From Actinokineospora baliensis (GTDB taxonomy: Bacteria > Actinomycetota > Actinomycetes > Mycobacteriales > Pseudonocardiaceae), in NCBI RefSeq assembly GCF_016907695.1, contig NZ_JAFBCK010000001.1:744001-808000 (forward strand): a stretch of DNA of 64,000 bases. The letters run 5' to 3'. Position 1 is the stretch's first letter. Every line of letters begins with the position of its first letter. The notes below the pieces were generated by a model. That model was not told the DNA's origin and ran no database searches. It saw only the letters and a list, made by a program, of their open reading frames with translations. This document shows, piece after piece, positions 22,357-32,340 of this stretch. The position numbers and the translations under genes were made by a program.

Positions 22357-22372
22357 CACGCGAGCGAAAGCC

Positions 22373-23427
<1,055 letters not shown>

Positions 23428-23431
<4 letters not shown>

Positions 23432-25329
23432 GCCGCATCGACCCCCTTCACGATGTCGGTGAGCACGTTCTGCAGTTCTTCGGCCTTGAACGGCAGGCCT
23501 GCGACCTTGGTGTAGCTGACGACGTCGACCAGGTACTTGGCCCTCAGGAGCAACGCGAGCTGCCCCAGGTTCATTTCCGGCACGACGACCTTGTCGTAAG
23601 AGCGCAGAACGTCGCCGAGGTTGGCGGGGAACGGGTTCAGGTTCCGCAGGTGGGCTTGCGCGACCGAGTGGCCGAGCTTGCGCACCCGTCGGCAGGCCGC
23701 GCCTATAGGCCCGTAGGACGAGCCCCAGCCCAGCACCAGCACCCGTGCCTTCCCGGACGGGTCGTCGACCCCCAGGTCCGGCACCGGGATGTTGTCGATC
23801 TTGGCCTGCCGCAGCCGGACCATGCGGTCGTGGTTGTCGGGCTCGTAGGAGATGTTGCCGGTGCCGTCGGCCTTCTCCAGACCGCCGATGCGGTGCTGCA
23901 GGCCAGGGGTACCCGGAACCGCCCACGCGCGCGCCAGCGTCTCCGGGTCGCGCAGGTACGGCCAGAACGCCGACCCGTCCGGCGAGTTGGGCTCGGTGGC
24001 GAACTCGACGGTCAGGTCGGGCAGGTCCTCGACGTCGGGGATCAGCCAGGGCTCGGAGCCGTTGGCGACCGCGCCGTCGGACAGCAGCAGCACCGGCGTG
24101 CGGTACTTGAGCGCGATGTGCGTGGCTTCCAGCGCCGCGGCGAAGCAGTCGGCGGGCGACTGCGGCGCGACGATCGGCACCGGGGACTCGCCGTTGCGGC
24201 CGTACATCGCCTGCAGCAGGTCTGCCTGCTCGGTCTTGGTCGGCAGACCGGTCGACGGGCCACCGCGCTGCACGTCGACAACGAGCAGCGGCAGCTCGGT
24301 CATCACACCAAGGCCGATGGTCTCGGACTTAAGCGCGACACCTGGCCCAGAGGTCGAAGTGACGCCTAGAGCGCCGCCGTAGCTTGCACCCAGCGCGGCG
24401 CAGATACCCGCGATCTCGTCCTCGGCCTGGAACGTCGTAATGCCGAACTGCTTGTACTTGGACAGCTCGTGCAAGATGTCCGACGCCGGGGTGATCGGGT
24501 ACGTGCCGAGCAGCACAGGCAGCTTCGACTGCTGCGCGGCGGCGACGATGCCGTAGGCCAACGCCGTGTTGCCGGTGATCTGGCGGTACGTGCCCGGGGC
24601 GAGCTTGGCGGGGGCCACCTCGTAGGTGACCGCGAACGCCTCGGTGGTCTCGCCGTAGTAGAAGCCCGCGCGGAACGCCAGGACGTTCGCCTCGGCGATG
24701 TCCGGCTTCTTGGCGAACTTCTCGCGCAGGAACCGCTCGGTGCCCTCGGTCGGCCGGTGGTACATCCACGACAGCAGACCCAGCGCGAACATGTTCTTGC
24801 AGCGCTCGGCGTCCTTCTTGCCGAGCCCGGTGTCCGCGAGGGCCCCTTGCGTGATCGTCGCCATCGCGACCTGGTGGACCTGGTACCCGGCAAGGGAGTC
24901 GTCTTCGAGCGGGTTGGCCGCGTACCCGACCTTCGTCAGGTTCCGCTTGACGAACTCGTCGGTGTTGACGATGAGCGTGCCACCCGCGGGCAGGTCGGCG
25001 ATGTTGGCCTTGAGCGCGGCCGGGTTCATCGCGACGAGCACGTCCGGCCGGTCGCCCGGGGTGAGGATGTCGTAGTCGGCGAAGTGCACCTGGAAGCTGG
25101 AGACACCGGGGATGGTGCCCTGGGGGGCGCGGATCTCCGCGGGGAAGTTGGGCATGGTGGACAGGTCGTTGCCGAAGGCAGCGGCCTCCGAGGTGAAGCG
25201 GTCGCCGGTGAGCTGCATGCCGTCACCGGAGTCCCCGGCGAACCGGATCACCACTCGATCGAGTTTGGTGACCGCGGCCGCCCGCGGGGTCCCGGTGGCG
25301 GCGGTACCACCGTCCACACCTGTGCTCAT
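23428..25329 (-). CDS. korA: 2-oxoacid:ferredoxin oxidoreductase, fused gamma-alpha subunit
   Basis: The 633-residue protein is a natural fusion: the gamma domain comes first (VVIRFAGDSGDGMQLTGDRF near residues 26-45), then the alpha pyrimidine-binding domain (LLGTYPITPASDILHEL and STSGPGVALKSE), then the transketolase C-terminal-like part (VLVLGWGSSYGPI). This is the actinobacterial KorA arrangement. The ATG at 25329 was chosen; an upstream in-frame start at 25356 would place the ribosome site inside the gene. It forms an operon with korB. Confidence 0.93.
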
Positions 25330-25556
25330 GAGCTGCCGAACCCTCTCTCCTGACACCCGGACTGGCTGGTCGTGTCGCGTTCAACGGTAGGCATCGCCGG
25401 ACCCCGGACCCGTGCAACGCGCTGCAGATCACAGTCCCGCGCGAGACCCCCATCCCAAAGTATCGGGTAAGGGCCTGGTGCGGTCCCAGTTTGAGTGTAA
25501 CCGGCGGTTACAGTTATCCCGCATGCTGGGCAGGTCGCTGGGATGCCGCGAACAGC

Positions 25557-26321
25557 CTACGGGGTCGCCGTCGACGAGATCCTGGCCTTCATCGCCGCCA
25601 GGAGCTGGGCGAACGCCGGGGCGTCCATCGAGGTCAGCTGGGCGGCGAGCTCGGTCTCGATGGCGTCGTCGTGGCGGGTTTGCGCTGCCGTGGTTCGCAG
25701 GGATTGCTTGATGGAGAGCACGAGTTCTTTAGGGGCCCCTGCGGTCGGCGCGGCGAGATCGACAGCGGCCTGGACGAGCGCCTCGTGGTCACCTTCGACC
25801 GTGCTCAAAGTCAGCCCGATCCGCCGCGCCTCGGTGGCGTCGACGACGTGCTTGAAGAGGGTCATCGCGGTCGCGGTCTGCGGCCCGACCAACCGCTGCA
25901 GCATCCAGGTCATGCCGCCCCCGGGGTGGATGCCCAACTGCAGGAACCGGGCGTCGAACCGCGCCTTGGGACCCGCGATCCGCACATCCGCCGCCAACGC
26001 CAGGTTCAACCCCGCGCCCACAGCGGCCCCGCCGACCGCCGCGATCGTCGGCAGCGAGCAGCGCGCGACAGCGAGGAACCCCGCATAGATCCCCCGCAGC
26101 CCCTCCTCGCGGGACTCGCCGAGCACGGTCAGGTCGGCCCCGGCGCAGAACGCGGGCGGGGTACCGGTCACCACCAGGGCCGCGATATCCGGGTCGGCCT
26201 CACACTCGGCGACCAACTCGGCGAGCCGTGCGGACATGGGCAACGTAAGAGCGTTGCGCCGGTCGGGGTCGTTGAGCGTGATCACTGCGACGCCCTCGCG
26301 CCGCTGCAGCAGGACGGTCAT
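25557..26321 (-). CDS. Enoyl-CoA hydratase/isomerase family protein
   Basis: The product of about 254 residues is a crotonase-fold enzyme: CoA-binding oxyanion segments PPAFCAGADL and AAVGGAAVGAGLNLALAAD, then FLQLGIHPGGGMTWML. It probably hydrates or isomerises an acyl-CoA in fatty acid or amino acid breakdown. The ATG at 26321 has AGGG about 9 nt upstream. An alternative GTG at 26354 would overlap the Lrp gene stop as GTGA, so the two genes are probably co-transcribed. Confidence 0.88.
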   Translation of the reverse strand: MTVLLQRREGVAVITLNDPDRRNALTLPMSARLAELVAECEADPDIAALVVTGTPPAFCAGADLTVLGESREEGLRGIYAGFLAVARCSLPTIAAVGGAAVGAGLNLALAADVRIAGPKARFDARFLQLGIHPGGGMTWMLQRLVGPQTATAMTLFKHVVDATEARRIGLTLSTVEGDHEALVQAAVDLAAPTAGAPKELVLSIKQSLRTTAAQTRHDDAIETELAAQLTSMDAPAFAQLLAAMKARISSTATP

Positions 26322-26350
26322 GTCCGCGCACCCTAGCGGCTCGTATCCAC

Positions 26351-26812
26351 TCACTGATTGGGCTCCGGCGCGGGCGGGCGCTCCAAGAGGGTGGACAGCA
26401 CGACAGTCGACACCGTGCGCGAGACCATGTCGACAGCGCGCAGCCGCTCCAGGGCGTCCTCTAGGTGGTGGATGTTGGCGGCGCGCAGGTGCACGATCGC
26501 GTCGGCGGAACCGGAGACCGTGTAGGCGGCCACCACCTCGGGCAGCGGCTCGAGGCGCTGGCGGATCCGATCGGGGGACACGTTGCCCTGGCAGTGCACC
26601 TCGACGAACGCCTCGGTGCCCCAGCCCAGCGCCTCGGGGTTGACCACGGCGGTGAACCCGCGCAGCACCCCGGTCTCCAGCAGCCGGTCCACCCGCCGCT
26701 TCACCGCGGGCGCCGAGAGCGACACGGCCTTCCCGATCTCGGCGTAACTCGACCTCGCGTCGGCCACGAGCTGTGAAATGATTCGCTGATCAATGACGTC
26801 CACACGCAACAT
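26351..26812 (-). CDS. Lrp/AsnC family transcriptional regulator
   Basis: The 153-residue protein has an N-terminal winged HTH (RIISQLVADARSSYAEIGKA, then LSAPAVKRRVDRL) and a C-terminal RAM ligand-binding domain (AYTVSGSADAIVHLRA). Lrp proteins sense amino acids. It is divergent from the dimethylargininase-like gene with 65 nt between starts, a layout that points to amino-acid-dependent control of that gene. The ATG at 26812 fits the family start. Confidence 0.92.
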   Translation of the reverse strand: MLRVDVIDQRIISQLVADARSSYAEIGKAVSLSAPAVKRRVDRLLETGVLRGFTAVVNPEALGWGTEAFVEVHCQGNVSPDRIRQRLEPLPEVVAAYTVSGSADAIVHLRAANIHHLEDALERLRAVDMVSRTVSTVVLSTLLERPPAPEPNQ

Positions 26813-26877
26813 TCTGCATGCTGATGGGCAGCGAAGCGACATTGATGGTTGCTCCGCGTGCCCTTACATTTCGATCC

Positions 26878-27735
26878 ATGACCTCGGCACCCGTGCGCCA
26901 GCCCGCGACCACCCGCCTCGCCACCACGCGGCGGTACCTCATGTGCGAGCCCACGTACTTCGCGGTCGAGTACTCCATCAACCCCTGGATGGACCCCACC
27001 CGGCCGGTGAGCACCGAGGGCGCCATCGCCGAGTGGGCGGCCCTGAAGCAGACCTACGAGCGGCTCGGCCACGTGGTGGAGACCATCGCCCCGCAGCCAG
27101 GCCTGCCCGACATGGTCTTCTCGGCCAACTCCGGCACGGTGATCGACGGGGTCGTGCTCGGCTCCCGTTTCCGCGCCCCCCAGCGCGCCGCCGAGGCCGA
27201 CTTCTTCCGCACCTGGTTCCTCGACCACGGCTACCGCGACATCGTGATGCCGGAGAAGATCAACGAGGCCGAGGGCGACCTCACCTGGACCGGCGACCTG
27301 TTGCTCGCGGGCACCGGCTTCCGCACCGACCCCGGCGCCCACGCCGAAGCCCAAGAGGTCCTCGGCGTCCCCGTGGTATCCCTGCAGCTGGTCGACCCCC
27401 GCTACTACCACCTGGACGTCGCGCTGGTGGTCCTCGCCGAAGCGACCCCCGGCTCCCGAGCCCACATCGCCTACTACCCCGCCGCCTTCTCCCCCGGCAC
27501 CCAACGCCTCCTGCGCCGCCTCTACCCGGACGCCATCCTGGCCACCGAAGAAGACGCCGCCTGCCTAGGCCTCAACGCCGTCTCCGACGGCCACAACGTC
27601 GTCATCGCCAAGGAAGCCACCACCCTGGCCGCCCAACTGGAAGCCCACGGCTACACCACCCACAACGTCGACATCACCGAACTCCGCAAGTCCGGCGGCG
27701 GCCCGAAGTGCTGCACGATGGAAATCCGGGGCTGA
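26878..27735 (+). CDS. Dimethylarginine dimethylaminohydrolase/amidinotransferase family
   Basis: The 285-residue protein has the pentein fold signatures of arginine-modifying enzymes: MCEPTYFAVEY and NPWMDP near the start, MVFSANSG, GEGD-like EAEGDLTW, the catalytic His in YYHLDVAL, and the catalytic Cys in GGGPKCCTM at the end. It likely hydrolyses dimethylarginine or a related guanidine to citrulline. The divergent Lrp regulator supports a role in arginine or ornithine metabolism. No rocD-type gene is adjacent. Confidence 0.85.
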   Translation: MTSAPVRQPATTRLATTRRYLMCEPTYFAVEYSINPWMDPTRPVSTEGAIAEWAALKQTYERLGHVVETIAPQPGLPDMVFSANSGTVIDGVVLGSRFRAPQRAAEADFFRTWFLDHGYRDIVMPEKINEAEGDLTWTGDLLLAGTGFRTDPGAHAEAQEVLGVPVVSLQLVDPRYYHLDVALVVLAEATPGSRAHIAYYPAAFSPGTQRLLRRLYPDAILATEEDAACLGLNAVSDGHNVVIAKEATTLAAQLEAHGYTTHNVDITELRKSGGGPKCCTMEIRG

Positions 27736-27883
27736 TATAACTACCGGGAGTGAGTTTACGGCCTACCACCCATGGCCCAAAGACCCCTGAAATCCTGCTT
27801 TAGGGTTTAAAGGCCGCCAGCCGTATGTAACTGTCCGTCGCTGAATGGGCCTCGGTATGGCCTCCCCGGAACTGTCAAGAAAC

Positions 27884-27924
27884 GGCCGACGGCTCCCGAG
27901 CGTGTTCCTCGGGAGCCGTCGGCC
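27884..27924. terminator. 17-bp perfect hairpin, probable integrase terminator
   Basis: GGCCGACGGCTCCCGAG at 27884-27900 pairs perfectly with 27908-27924 around a 7-nt loop. It lies just beyond the 3' end of the integrase remnant on the minus strand, where AICE integrase genes end. It is one of the strongest hairpins in the window. Confidence 0.75.
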
Positions 27925-27929
27925 TGCGG

Positions 27930-28340
27930 TTTCGTCGCGTTAGCCAGTCGTCGATCCGGCTGTTGGAGGCGTTCCGCTGGACCATCCAGGCACCTTACGT
28001 AGACCTTCAAAATGCACATCGACCGTGTGCCCGGCCCGCCCCGCCACCTCAGCCATGGGCACCCGGCCGCCAAGTGAACACACGCGTACCTAAGGTCGTA
28101 CGACCGCTTCGCCAACGGCCTCCTTACAGTGCCCAGCGCGATCTCCCGCCCGCTTCCACACGTTGGCGTGGATCGACGGCGTGACCGGCTCGCCTTCTCC
28201 TAGCCCCGGAAGAGACGACCGTTCCAGGTCGCGCCGAAACCGTCCAGGCGCTCCCGAAGGATCGCCACGAGCTGGAATAGGATTGGCACCACTCGAACCG
28301 CGCCCTCGGCCCGCCGTTTCAGCGCTCATTCCTCCCACCG
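27930..28340 (-). pseudogene. Tyrosine recombinase (AICE integrase) C-terminal remnant
   Basis: Three minus-strand frames carry consecutive pieces of one integrase C-terminus. IHANVWKRAGDRA near 28150 is followed, in another frame, by LAKRSYDLRYACV near 28090-28125 with the catalytic Arg. A third frame holds GVPMAEVAGRAGHTVDV near 28030 with the HxxR-box His. Then CILKVYVRCLDG near 27985-28020 contains the catalytic Tyr. AICE integrases show the same order in one frame. Several frameshifts and the missing N-terminus make it non-functional. Confidence 0.75.
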
Positions 28341-28439
28341 CTCCACCTGACGGGGTACCGCGGCGGCTGCGAAGCCAGCCGGGATAACACCAGTTCGCCG
28401 CCCGACTCCGGCTGCTTGCAGTCCTCCTCCCTGGGCCTG

Positions 28440-28885
28440 TTCACCTCAGCGGGACACAAGCGCCGCCCCGAAGGCGAACACGTGGGCGGGCCCTTGACCT
28501 CGTCCAGCGCGTCTGTCCCGGGAGGGGGATGAGGGGATGGCAGGTGTGGGGGTCGACGTACCATTCCCGTCCCACACCAGCAAGCAATCGGCGGAGATCA
28601 ACTCGTCTTGCGGTGGCCACCAGACTTGCAGGTAGGTTGCCGCTTTGACCTGCTGCAGCGTCTCGTGCGGGATTAAACCGCAGATCGCGACGAGTAGATG
28701 CGGCGCCACCCCCGCGTTGTAGTTCGACGGTGGTGAAGTACTGCACCTCCCAGTCGACGGCGCGGCGCAGGTTCTGCCACCACCGGTCGAACAGGAAGGC
28801 GAAGTGCGCCGCACCCCCGCAGCCCAGCGGTAACATCCACCCGTCGACCCACCTCCGCATCGACCACGCCCGGGAGAACCGCACG
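28440..28885 (-). pseudogene. RepSA-type replication initiator remnant
   Basis: Pieces of an actinomycete plasmid/AICE replication initiator occur in alternating frames: FDRWWQNLRRAVDWEVQYF near 28720-28800, then APHLLVAICGLIPHETL and TYLQVWWPPQDEL near 28600-28690, then EWYVDPHTCHPL, ALDEVKG and PAHVFAFGAALVS toward 28445. In intact members these form one continuous segment. At least three frameshifts are needed to join them, so this is a pseudogene. It lies next to the integrase remnant, as in pSAM2-like elements. Confidence 0.75.
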
Positions 28886-29252: not shown

Positions 29253-31211
29253 TCAGCGCACCAAATGCTCGTACCGACGAACCTGCTCAATGAGAGGACT
29301 AAGTGAATTGTCCTCAGGGCGGCTGAGGCCACTACACCACTGCAGGGCCGTAATTGGGGCTGGCATGCTGGCCGCAACTCGCTGGATAGCGGCAACCAAC
29401 GCGTCTATCCCGCCGAAGGTTCTAGCCTCTACGTTTAGATCGTGGAGGTATTGCTTCGGGTAGAGGTATTCGCCCAGAAACGGTGAGCGAGGGGCGCAGG
29501 TCAATGCCTCAACTTCGGCCAACAGATCGACGGTTCCGTCAAATTCTCCCACGTTTTCGTAGATCAGCTTTGCGTTGTAAGCCAGAAGATGCAGTGCTCG
29601 CGTGATGTTCGCGGGCGTCAACCTCGACCTAGGTCGATCCGAAAGCGAAACCTGGGCGGCCCAGTATGCAGTTGCCCAGTGCCCAGCCGCGCTGAGTGCG
29701 GTTGCCAGTTCCCCCCAAGCCGAGCGAGTGTGCTGGGATTCAACCCAAGCAGAGGGATCATCGAGCAAGGCGGCCCTGACCTCCCAGACTTCAGTGAGAG
29801 CCTGGGCTGGCTTCTTCAATGTGCGCAGAGTGTGGGAAAGCGCGACCCAAGCACCCATGTGTCGATGAGACACATTACAAGCCGTACGACACAATTGCAG
29901 CGCAAGCGGCCCGATCAAATCATGCGAAAGGCCGCTGCGCATCAGTCGATGCCCCAGATCCAACAACCGGCCGAAACCATCCCGAAAACCAAACTGCTCG
30001 CCCATAGCGCCGATGTCATGCAGAAACTTGTCGAGGCTTGTTTCCACCCGCAAGTCAGATTCGTCATCGAGGGCGAGCTCGAGCAGAGCCTTCGAGATCA
30101 TCGGATGCCTCGAGAAGAACTCCGATGACGAACTACCGAGGAAGAATTCCCGTTTCATCGGCACTTCAACCTTTGGCCGCAGCTCGGATTCTAGAATGCC
30201 TAGGAACTGGGCAACCACATCTCTCGGCACGCCTTCAATTTCGCTGACATCCACAGCAGCAAGCACAACAAGGAAATCTGCCAGAGTGATCTTTGGCAGC
30301 TCCGGATAAATAGTGTCCAGCTTGGCCACCAGAGAGGCCAGCCTGGAACGCAAGCTCTCCGAGTCGAACCGAACGGAGATGACGCCGCCCATAAAGGCTT
30401 GTCGACCACCAGAAGCACTACTGGCGTCGAGCACATTCTTCGCAATCTCCTGAACACTTTTACCGCGGATCAATACTGGCCGACTCGAGGAGCAGTTGAT
30501 CCAGTTCTCCGCCAGCACCCGAGCGTCGGCGGGTTCGACCGTCCGCAGATTCACCGGAGTCAGGACGCGAAATGAGGGTTCCAGCCTGCTGGAGACGCTG
30601 AACTTCCATCTCAGTCGATCACGTTCAGCGTTCCAGTCCACGTCCCGGCTCGCCAAGAGAAAATGGACAAAGACGTCCTCTTCGTGAAGCTTCGTTCTGG
30701 CGAACTCGTCGATATCAGAAAGTAGACACTCGGCCTCGTCGGAAACGATCAAGAATTGCGATTGCCTCGCTTGCATCGCCTCGATGACGTCCGGAGTGAG
30801 TCGGGCATCCGGCCTGTTTCGCCAGTAGAGCGTCTCGAAAACGCCGTCCTTCAACAGCGTCACTGCGGCCTGCATGAGTACAGTGGACTTGCCATCACCG
30901 GTGGCCCCTGCGATCCGGAGCAGCACACTTCGGTCCTCTAGATCGCGATTGGAGAACTCCTGCACGACTTTGTGCACAGCGGGTCGAGCTTTCAAATTGG
31001 GGTGACACACGTCCTTCCAGTCGGGCTGAGCACCGTCGAAGAAGTGCACGAGGTCAGAACGCACTTTAGTGTCGACAAAAGACTGCGCGGTCTTGCGAAC
31101 CCATCCCCGCAAGGGCGAAGTCGACTCCGTCCCAGGGTTCACATAAATGTTCCCGAACGCTTGATAGTTTGTGGATCCCGTTCCACCGTGCTGCTCTTGA
31201 CGAGGCTCCAT
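29253..31211 (-). CDS. STAND-like P-loop ATPase with N-terminal NYQAFGNI motif
   Basis: The 652-residue protein begins with a short Gly/Asn-rich tail containing STNYQAFGNIYV (residues 13-24), then a helical linker, a P-loop NTPase domain with Walker A GATGDGKST (102-110) and Walker B FLIVSDEAE (153-161), and about 400 helical residues that look like a winged-helix plus repeat region. This is the plan of STAND NTPases, which act as switchable sensors in immunity and cell-death pathways. The start is 3 nt after the stop of the membrane protein gene. The N-terminal motif is nearly the same as the C-terminal motif of that partner. Composition is lower in GC than the flanks. Confidence 0.8.
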   Translation of the reverse strand: MEPRQEQHGGTGSTNYQAFGNIYVNPGTESTSPLRGWVRKTAQSFVDTKVRSDLVHFFDGAQPDWKDVCHPNLKARPAVHKVVQEFSNRDLEDRSVLLRIAGATGDGKSTVLMQAAVTLLKDGVFETLYWRNRPDARLTPDVIEAMQARQSQFLIVSDEAECLLSDIDEFARTKLHEEDVFVHFLLASRDVDWNAERDRLRWKFSVSSRLEPSFRVLTPVNLRTVEPADARVLAENWINCSSSRPVLIRGKSVQEIAKNVLDASSASGGRQAFMGGVISVRFDSESLRSRLASLVAKLDTIYPELPKITLADFLVVLAAVDVSEIEGVPRDVVAQFLGILESELRPKVEVPMKREFFLGSSSSEFFSRHPMISKALLELALDDESDLRVETSLDKFLHDIGAMGEQFGFRDGFGRLLDLGHRLMRSGLSHDLIGPLALQLCRTACNVSHRHMGAWVALSHTLRTLKKPAQALTEVWEVRAALLDDPSAWVESQHTRSAWGELATALSAAGHWATAYWAAQVSLSDRPRSRLTPANITRALHLLAYNAKLIYENVGEFDGTVDLLAEVEALTCAPRSPFLGEYLYPKQYLHDLNVEARTFGGIDALVAAIQRVAASMPAPITALQWCSGLSRPEDNSLSPLIEQVRRYEHLVR

Positions 31212-31214
31212 ATA

Positions 31215-31613
31215 CTAGGACTTTCTGCGCTTACTCTCGACCGGGTCAACTTTGATGTTGCCACCTGCCTGATAGTTGACGGAATCACGACCACCGACCT
31301 GTTTCTGGACGATGACCGGTTTCGCCTCCGCCGGTTCTAGATCGTCAACCGCCACGAGAAAGCTGCCAATCATAGCCAGAGCTCCGAAAAAAAGAACGGC
31401 GACCCCGAGAATTCCCGGCCAATGCCAGAAGCTTCGCGACGCGTCCTGAAGACTGTAGATCAGGTAGCCAACACACAACGACCCACCCACACCCGAGAGG
31501 GTCGATCCGAGAGGCATAAGTCGCTTGTGCCATGTCGCCATGCAGAGAGTGTACTCGAACCGATATCCTTCGGCAAAGACCTTCACAATCAGAGAGCGCT
31601 TCCGGCCTGCCAT
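31215..31613 (-). CDS. Two-helix membrane protein with C-terminal NYQAGGNI motif
   Basis: The product has two hydrophobic helices (about residues 36-55 and 66-89 counting from the ATG at 31613) joined by a short loop, then a charged tail ending in DSVNYQAGGNIKVDP and KRRKS. The tail motif matches the N-terminus of the ATPase encoded 3 nt downstream. It could be a membrane-disrupting effector switched on by the ATPase. The start is unsure: the frame extends to an ATG at 31697, neither start has a clear ribosome site, and another frame upstream (around 31620-31750) looks codon-like, so a frameshift at the 5' end cannot be excluded. Confidence 0.65.
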   Translation of the reverse strand: MAGRKRSLIVKVFAEGYRFEYTLCMATWHKRLMPLGSTLSGVGGSLCVGYLIYSLQDASRSFWHWPGILGVAVLFFGALAMIGSFLVAVDDLEPAEAKPVIVQKQVGGRDSVNYQAGGNIKVDPVESKRRKS

Positions 31614-31697
31614 GGGCTGGAGAAGTGGCGAAGCTCTTGGTAGATGACTTCTCGATGAGAGCAAGGCCATCGGCAGGAGCTTCGTGTACTTGTTCAT

Positions 31698-31980
31698 CCG
31701 TCAGCATATTGACCTGTCCAGTTGGCATCCGCAGTTCTTCGCTCGGGAGCTGTCCGGCACCGGACCTGACCCACGCTGCACACGTCGCCACATGCAACGC
31801 CTATTTATCCGCGACGCCAGCCTGCTACGCATCGACCACATCGCCGCCGACCGCACTACTCAGGAAACACAAGCGACACGGAATGAACGCCCTACTCCTC
31901 GCACACCTGGACGGACTGCCCTGGACCTCACCGCGCTGCCGGGAGCGGCGCACGACCTGACTGAGACCCGACCCCATGGC
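31698..31980. other. Gap between the membrane protein gene and the HAD remnant
   Basis: About 280 nt with no supported gene. It should contain the promoter of the two-gene ATPase module on the minus strand. Short frames on both strands show no known domain. Confidence 0.35.
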
Positions 31981-32340
31981 ATTGTCGACGCCCTGACCGC
32001 TGCAGGCGTCCCATGCTGGGCGGCCAATGCCTGCCAACGAGCGGACGGTCCGATCCGCGTCCCATATCAGTGGCAACCCTCTCACCCAGTCAGCAGGCGG
32101 ACGACCGCCCCCACGCCCTGGCAAACAAGCCGTACCAACCCTCAAACTGGCGACTTGCTAGACGAAGCGCTGGCTGGCCGCTCGACTCCCGCCGTTTTCG
32201 TGGGCGATTCGGTATCCGACCTGCACGCCGCGAAGGCGGCCGCAGTCCCGTTCATCGGCTACGCCAACAAGCTGGGCAAAATCACCAGCCTGGCCCGCTC
32301 AGCGGCCGTGACGACATCCATGGACTGCTGTCTGAAATGA
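31981..32340 (+). pseudogene. HAD-family hydrolase remnant
   Basis: IVDALTAAGVPCWAA near 31981 resembles the helical part of HAD phosphatases, and the end reads VFVGDSVSDLHAAKAAAV followed by FIGYANKLGK, the motif IV region with its acidic pair. Between them the frame is disturbed (a KPYQPS piece lies in another frame) and the N-terminal DxD motif is missing. HAD genes like this are common cargo near AICE elements. It is non-functional. Confidence 0.6.

What the first reader, a model, noticed from the sequence alone, without database searches (positions are those of the whole stretch)
29253..31697. Membrane protein plus STAND-like ATPase sharing an NYQAxGNI motif at their meeting ends
Seen: the membrane protein ends with SVNYQAGGNIKV and the ATPase, 3 nt downstream, begins with STNYQAFGNIYV. 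The two tails match at nearly every position although the rest of the proteins are unrelated. Known: in bacterial NLR-like systems a short amyloid-type motif (RHIM-like, with a hydrophobic-Gln-x-Gly core) can occur at the C-terminus of an effector and the N-terminus of the neighbouring STAND NTPase, passing on an activated fold. Inferred: the ATPase senses an invader and templates assembly of the two-helix membrane protein, which then damages the membrane. Location in a decayed mobile element fits a defence cargo. I do not recognise this exact pair.
Basis: partly seen in the sequence, partly recalled or inferred. Interest (0 to 1): 0.87.

Follow-up and report, generated by a model that had tools for sequence, protein, structure and literature searches.

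The report
Paired-motif STAND ATPase and membrane effector
A bacterial immune-type ATPase and a tiny neighbouring membrane protein carry the same short tag at their facing ends, and a second species keeps the same arrangement, so the pair probably works as an alarm that switches on a membrane-damaging partner; it looks like a new branch of a known kind of system.

Summary
Confirmed. Window 31215-31541 (-; ORF to 31697) encodes a small membrane-type protein ending QKQVGGRDSVNYQAGGNIKVDP...; 3 nt on, 29253-31211 (-) encodes a 652-aa P-loop ATPase (Pfam nSTAND_NTPase5, E 2.9e-26) beginning ...QEQHGGTGSTNYQAFGNIYVNP. The tags match at E 8e-6; 0 of 5000 shuffles reached the score. In 390 family genomes a DNA pattern for NYQAxGN[I/M] occurs in two only, twice in each, as this pair. 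The second genome, Amycolatopsis sp. NBRC 101858, has full orthologues (51% and 54%) and keeps the tags while the rest of the effector tail drifted (16/20 versus 2/22 identical). Codons differ, so the peptide is kept. Both pairs are GC-poor, probably horizontally acquired; here beside remnants of a pSAM2-like element. Three of five related nSTAND5 proteins scanned have a SIR2 domain N-terminal to the ATPase domain, where this one has the tag. Best reading: a STAND signalosome whose activated ATPase templates a membrane effector through a shared amyloid-type motif. The tag matches the one BASS3 peptide at hand only weakly; BASS profiles were unavailable, no structure was obtained, and amyloid, toxicity and defence are inferred.

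The parts
31215..31541 (-). small membrane effector candidate, 108 aa from the conserved Met53 (ORF runs to 31697): one clear transmembrane stretch (19-residue windows starting at 37-51), a weaker hydrophobic stretch before it, then a polar tail with the tag
   Evidence: 54% identical to the Amycolatopsis orthologue; no PADLOC hit; Pfam only DUF4131 at 17.6 bits, cut-off 31.6
31248..31307 (-). C-terminal tag of the effector, QKQVGGRDSVNYQAGGNIKV
   Evidence: 16 of 20 residues identical to the orthologue, rest of tail 2 of 22
29253..31211 (-). 652-aa STAND-type P-loop ATPase
   Evidence: nSTAND_NTPase5 E 2.9e-26; Walker A GATGDGKST, strand ending SD, LLASR segment
31140..31199 (-). N-terminal tag of the ATPase, QEQHGGTGSTNYQAFGNIYV
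30618..31046 (-). nSTAND5 nucleotide-binding domain, residues 56-198
29256..30617 (-). C-terminal region, residues 199-652, possible helical-repeat sensor
   Evidence: only TPR_14 at E 0.12; one related protein, L037, has clear TPRs; inferred
27820..28426 (-). remnant related to the integrase region of a pSAM2-like element
   Evidence: 72% identical over 637 bp to L277:13272-13898, which overlaps an ORF with a Phage_integrase match, E 7e-7
28441..28884 (-). remnant of a RepSA-type replication-initiator gene
   Evidence: RepSA E 2e-4, below cut-off; 28465-28825 is 74% identical to part of an L277 ORF with RepSA E 1e-99
31684..32340 (+). ORF with an HAD-phosphatase-like end, probably a remnant
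   Evidence: HAD_2 E 0.038, below cut-off; window 32161-32330 is 70% identical to L275:5478-5651

Best explanation
A two-gene NLR-type (STAND) signalosome. The ATPase is receptor and switch: its C-terminal region is held off until it meets a trigger (most likely a phage product), ATP binding drives oligomerisation, and the clustered N-terminal tags adopt an ordered, probably cross-beta (beta-arch) assembly. That assembly templates the matching tag at the C-terminus of the small membrane protein, clustering it in the membrane so that it permeabilises it and stops the infected cell. Shown: the pair, the tag on both sides, its conservation as peptide, the ATPase class, the same pair in a second genus. 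Strongly suggested: horizontal transfer. Inferred: trigger, oligomerisation, amyloid nature of the contact, toxicity, defence role.
For: Tag match far above chance. In 2 of 390 family genomes the motif pattern occurs, twice in each and only as this pair. The orthologous pair in Amycolatopsis keeps gene order, short spacing and both tags; tag 16/20 against 2/22 in the rest of the tail (boundaries were chosen after seeing the alignment, so its p of 3e-6 is optimistic); conserved residues often use different codons. ATPase is nSTAND_NTPase5; 3 of 5 class proteins of that family scanned have a SIR2 domain N-terminal to it, two of them of the ThsA/Dsr2 sort by PADLOC. Both pairs are 52-57% GC in loci near 69%. 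A review describes this layout for BASS systems: motif at the C-terminus of a small membrane-type effector and at the N-terminus of the adjacent NLR (passages of PMC7889193).
Against: Only two pairs are known here, so covariation of the tags cannot be tested. The motif-less relative G240 (32%) shows that the ATPase lineage does not need the tag. Pfam finds nothing in four tails even at E 10, and similarity to the BASS3 peptide is weak. Only one of two hydrophobic stretches of the effector passes the threshold. No structure prediction could be run. No PADLOC hit for either protein or its orthologue.
Confidence: 0.65

Rival explanations
1. The tag is a constitutive, non-amyloid docking strand: ATPase and membrane protein form a stable complex through beta-strand pairing, and the ATPase gates or is recruited to a membrane channel or sensor; information may even flow from membrane to ATPase.
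For: The motif is short and could pair as strands; each side has its own signature (QAGGNI in both effectors, QA[F/A]GNIYV in both ATPases), which could mean a heterotypic contact.
Against: Near-identical motifs on both partners are the mark of homotypic templating; a simple docking pair need not look alike.
Confidence: 0.22
2. A member of a published BASS family (RHIM-like BASS3 or another of BASS1-10) with a Bell-type effector, so only a further example. This shares the mechanism of the best explanation and competes only on novelty.
For: Same layout; effector size (108 aa, tag at 79-98) resembles the Frankia BASS3 effector whose motif lies at 103-123; Q-A-G-G-N resembles Q-V-G-D-G-N of that peptide.
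Against: One residue shorter between Q and N; the ATPase side lacks the G after QA; shuffles reach the alignment score in 80, 54, 814 and 88 of 3000 for the four tails. BASS and Bell profiles were not at hand and the founding paper is not held.
Confidence: 0.3
3. Chance, a duplicated segment of no function, or a shared DNA element rather than a peptide motif.
For: Nucleotide identity of the two tags in the window is 34 of 57, so a common origin is possible.
Against: Shuffle and real-protein controls; conservation across two genera with synonymous codon change.
Confidence: 0.03

Closest known systems
BASS amyloid signalosomes (NLR plus Bell-type effector), chiefly BASS3/RHIM-like (Dyrka et al. 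2020, not held, not read; described in PMC7889193, passages, and PMC8086366, passages and its section 13)
   Same: Two adjacent genes, motif at effector C-terminus and receptor N-terminus, small membrane-type effector, actinobacteria
   Different: Consensus of the four tails, GGx(2)S[VT]NYQAxGNIx[VI], fits the one BASS3 peptide only weakly; the receptor is nSTAND5 with no NB-ARC or NACHT hit; the effector has no family hit
nSTAND_NTPase5 proteins with an N-terminal SIR2-like domain (G513, G364, G404)
   Same: Same NTPase domain family
   Different: Effector domain is fused there; here it is a separate gene and the N-terminus holds only the tag
Avs5 (SIR2-nSTAND3-repeats; PMC12931631, passages)
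   Same: STAND ATPase with N-terminal output and C-terminal sensor region
   Different: Other nSTAND family (nSTAND3 only E 0.1 here); no separate membrane effector named in the passages seen
Fungal HET-S/NWD2 (recalled), sigma and PP systems (passages of PMC8086366)
   Same: Works like: receptor N-terminal motif templates effector C-terminal motif
   Different: Membership tested only through Pfam, which gave no hit

Membership tests
nSTAND_NTPase5 (PF25199) | profile match above the curated cut-off (34 bits) | tested here: met
   92.5 bits, E 2.9e-26; orthologue 86.2 bits
STAND/NLR receptor | P-loop with Walker A, Walker-B-like strand and an LLxSR sensor-like segment (definition recalled) | tested here: met
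   G[AP]TG[DE]GKST, SD and LLASR kept in three sequences
STAND/NLR receptor | C-terminal repeat sensor domain | tested here: inconclusive
   TPR_14 only E 0.12; no structure obtained
NLR-associated amyloid signalosome (BASS type) | similar motif at effector C-terminus and adjacent receptor N-terminus | tested here: met
NLR-associated amyloid signalosome (BASS type) | motif pair kept in homologous gene pairs | tested here: met
   the one orthologous pair found keeps both; but it was found through a motif pattern, and ATPase G240 (32%) lacks the motif
NLR-associated amyloid signalosome (BASS type) | motif forms cross-beta fibrils and cross-seeds | not testable with these tools
   needs peptides
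BASS3/RHIM-like motif | match to the BASS3 or RHIM profile | tested here: inconclusive
   no Pfam hit in 4 tails at E 10; weak alignment to one published BASS3 peptide; BASS profiles not available
Bell domain | match to the Bell profile | not testable with these tools
   profile not available; no Pfam family above cut-off
Known anti-phage system (PADLOC) | model hit for either protein | tested here: not met
   no hit for the window proteins at E 1 or the orthologues at E 0.01

The most novel reading that the evidence does not exclude
A signalling-motif family outside the ten published BASS families, in which the nSTAND5 ATPase lineage has exchanged a covalently fused effector (SIR2 and others) for a peptide tag that calls in a separate, previously undescribed small membrane effector; the motif would be the adaptor that lets one receptor lineage change its killing mechanism by swapping a 20-residue tag and its matching partner gene.
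Probability: 0.4. Interest if true: 0.68.

Novelty: new variant of a known kind. Interest (0 to 1): 0.56.

Why it matters
If right, it adds a new effector and motif type to bacterial signalling by fold templating and shows, within one ATPase family, both states side by side: effector fused (SIR2-nSTAND5) and effector in trans through a shared tag. That makes the question of how NLR-type receptors acquire new effectors testable by swapping tags between two small genes in a laboratory host. It is rare (2 of 390 family genomes), which suggests that other private motif pairs may escape family-based searches.

Tried and rejected
Relatives by tblastn-confirmed scan: none in genome contigs with P0001, none in viral contigs with A1 or A2; but one search missed the 51% orthologue that lies in the same collection, so these three negatives are weak. 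None in plasmids or phages by tblastn with P0001. Pfam PF25199 over the class rang in 380 of 394 genomes at E <= 0.001 but also in 14 of 14 control genomes, so only matches over the cut-off (46 of 394 genomes) were taken as informative. I fetched 20 regions (18 from matches, G240 and G170), scanned all 20 for an N[YFVILTQ]Q-type motif with no hit outside the window genome, read the first 200 residues in 12 and scanned 5 with Pfam. The viral pattern scan was too loose (87 stretches); the genome-contig scan gave 91; filtering both for end-of-one-ORF and start-of-next left the own locus, L165 and one low-complexity chance case, L134. The patterns fixed Q-[A/G]-x-G-N and the spacing, so variant pairs would be missed. 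Marginal hits dropped as chance: G738 and G719 for the effector (E 4e-4 per genome among 386, hydrophobic stretches in 704- and 485-aa ORFs) and G170 for the ATPase (E 6e-4). PDB searches: A1 best E 0.33, A3 none at 0.1. No promoter-like site; terminator-like sites 2 against 2.9 expected. The idea that the relatives' other operon sits at the very same point was rejected: the pair lies between DDAH and the HAD remnant, that operon at the other end of the inverted block.

Full report
Observation. Two minus-strand ORFs lie head to tail. The first, 31215-31697, is 160 aa as an ORF; comparison with its orthologue puts the likely start at Met53 (MATWHKRLMPLGSTL...), giving 108 aa (31215-31541). The second, 29253-31211, is 652 aa and starts 3 nt after the stop of the first. 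The facing ends align over 22 residues, 14 identical (QKQVGGRDSVNYQAGGNIKVDP / QEQHGGTGSTNYQAFGNIYVNP), BLASTP E 8e-6 in that single comparison. Local score 67; shuffled effector tails gave a mean of 18.6 and a maximum of 39 (0 of 5000 reached it). Among 3634 C-termini of stop-to-stop ORFs of 100 aa or more in the window and selected loci (six frames, so spurious ORFs included) only two copies of the Amycolatopsis orthologue score higher (68); the best unrelated one scores 43. A DNA pattern for NYQAxGN has two matches in the window, expected 0.00.

The proteins. The ATPase matches Pfam nSTAND_NTPase5 (E 2.9e-26, 92.5 bits, cut-off 34), with a Walker A (GATGDGKST), a Walker-B-like strand ending in SD and an LLASR segment kept in three aligned sequences. 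The part after residue 198 has only a weak TPR hit (E 0.12). The small protein has one clear hydrophobic stretch (19-residue hydropathy windows above 1.4 start at residues 37-51); the earlier stretch around residues 8-29 does not pass that threshold, so two helices are my reading of the sequence. A polar tail with the tag follows. Neither protein has a PADLOC hit.

Relatives. With the ATPase as query, 3 of 249 family genomes rang: the own genome, G240 (32% identity, E 6e-67) and a marginal G170. A pattern scan of the genome-contig collection (84,980 species by the tool's description) for two Q[A/G]xGN motifs 41-101 nt apart gave 91 stretches; asking that the first lie at the end of one ORF and the second near the start of the next left one true pair outside the window genome: L165, Amycolatopsis sp. 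NBRC 101858, Pseudonocardiaceae. Its ATPase is 51% identical over the full length and its effector 54%. A pattern for NYQAxGN[I/M] over 390 genomes of the window's family matched in two genomes only, twice in each, at exactly these places; the reversed control pattern shows no match in any row listed. The effector profile found 4 of 386 family genomes at E <= 0.001, two real and two marginal, and 1 of 296 in a phylum sample, the own genome. The ATPase profile found 1 of 80 in the genus of the Amycolatopsis genome and 1 of 163 in a class sample at E <= 1e-10, the own genome. The pair is rare, and in both genomes found to have the effector it sits beside the ATPase. A caution: the second pair was found through the motif, so motif conservation in it is partly built into the search; the full-length orthology of both genes was not.

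Conservation of the tag. Between the two species the effector tag keeps 16 of 20 residues while the rest of the tail keeps 2 of 22 (Fisher p 3e-6, optimistic because the boundaries were set after seeing the alignment). ATPase residues 1-24 keep 16 of 24 (the GTG start counted as M) while the next 11 columns keep 1. Over 19 codons the effector tags share 15 residues but 4 codons, the ATPase tags 13 residues but 4 codons. So the peptide, not a DNA element, is kept. Each side has its own signature: QAGGNI in both effectors, QA[F/A]GNIYV in both ATPases.

What stands in the same place elsewhere. Of five class proteins with nSTAND5 scanned with Pfam, three (G513, G364, G404) have a SIR2-like domain N-terminal to the NTPase; G444 and G570 have long N-terminal regions without a hit at E 0.01 (they look to me like a phosphoesterase and a trypsin-like protease from the letters, which is not a tool result). 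In the window and Amycolatopsis proteins only 55-58 residues precede the NTPase domain. The G240 relative has no tag and instead a 235-aa gene with a hydrophobic stretch and a charged, probably helical part overlapping its 3' end (no Pfam hit). The tag therefore looks like an exchangeable output device in this ATPase lineage; that is inference from few sequences.

Genomic setting. GC of the pair is 56-57% in a window mostly near 69-70%; of the Amycolatopsis pair 52-53% in a 16-kb stretch of 68.5%. None of the other 15 genomes of the genus has the ATPase at E <= 0.001. The DDAH gene at 26.9-27.7 kb and the gene at 32.9-34.7 kb have matches in 16 of 16 genus genomes, the latter partial or weak in several. 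In all six of the 15 other genus loci that I fetched, the block 22.37-27.73 kb is in the opposite orientation relative to the flanking gene at 32.4 kb. Downstream of DDAH, G236 carries an ORF with a Phage_integrase match (E 7e-7) and one with RepSA (E 1e-99), which points to a pSAM2-like integrative element (the link of RepSA with pSAM2 is in the Pfam name; the rest is recalled). The window keeps diverged stretches of both at 27820-28426 and 28441-28884. Window 32161-32330, the HAD-like remnant, matches DNA that in G244 lies about 1.2 kb downstream of DDAH, so the pair sits between DDAH and this remnant, on the side where the element lies in G236. The decayed mobile element is thus supported; that the pair was its cargo is inference.

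Another possible paired-motif system in relatives. At the other end of the inverted block, four of the six loci (G244, G220, G236, G167) carry 4.5-4.8 kb where the other two (G211, G119) have 90 and 66 bp. By my reading of the ORFs it encodes a CRP-like regulator, a nucleotide-cyclase-like protein, an NLR-like protein and a membrane-type protein. Pfam does not confirm the middle two: no hit for the cyclase-like protein of L275 and L280 at E 10, none for the NLR-like protein of L275 and only weak ones (nSTAND3 E 0.053) for that of L280; PADLOC has none for L275. In the three loci whose tails I compared (L275, L280, L276), the C-terminus of the one and the N-terminus of the other share a different motif (NVNNGSGAQIN / NVNNGPGPQFN and the like; scores 57, 83, 77 against maxima of 42, 57, 49 in 2000 shuffles each). 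The window genome has no match to the L275 NLR-like protein. Not followed further.

Mechanism and comparison. The layout is that of the published NLR-associated amyloid signalosomes (PMC7889193 passages; PMC8086366 passages and section 13; PMC12261475 passages). I therefore think that the ATPase, once triggered, oligomerises and templates the effector tag, clustering the effector in the membrane. That it works like such a system I put at 0.65. That it belongs to a named BASS family is not established: the one BASS3 peptide that I could read aligns weakly, Pfam finds nothing in four tails at E 10, and the BASS and Bell profiles and the founding paper were not available. Structure prediction could not be run because the queue stayed full in 14 tries.

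Literature. In the listings of searches for amyloid signalling motifs with NLR, Bell and BASS and for nSTAND I saw no title or abstract start about an nSTAND5 ATPase with such a tag. These searches cover only open-licence PMC papers; I looked at passages of five papers (PMC8086366, PMC12261475, PMC7889193, PMC8195603, PMC12931631) and one section of the first, so absence in print is not shown.

Noticed in passing
L275:13101-15784, L280:12181-14927, L276 and L277 (same-genus loci): Four of six relatives examined carry 4.5-4.8 kb with, by eye, CRP-like, cyclase-like, NLR-like and membrane-type ORFs; in the three compared (L275, L276, L280) the cyclase-like C-terminus and NLR-like N-terminus share another motif. 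Pfam does not confirm the family names. Possibly a second motif-paired signalosome.
   Followed up: partly
window 22370-27730: Block inverted relative to 6 of 6 same-genus loci examined, with DNA not aligned to them at both ends (20.0-22.4 kb with a subtilisin-like ORF by eye; 27.7-32.2 kb apart from the element remnants).
   Followed up: partly
L277:13392-16560: Integrase and RepSA ORFs of a pSAM2-like element downstream of the DDAH gene in G236, related to the remnants in the window.
   Followed up: partly
L034:30-6239: G240: KAP-family NTPase ORF and an HAD-like ORF by eye near the motif-less nSTAND5 ATPase, which overlaps a 235-aa gene with a hydrophobic stretch.
   Followed up: no
At E <= 0.001 PF25199 rings in nearly every genome, 14 of 14 controls included; only its curated cut-off separates members.
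   Followed up: no
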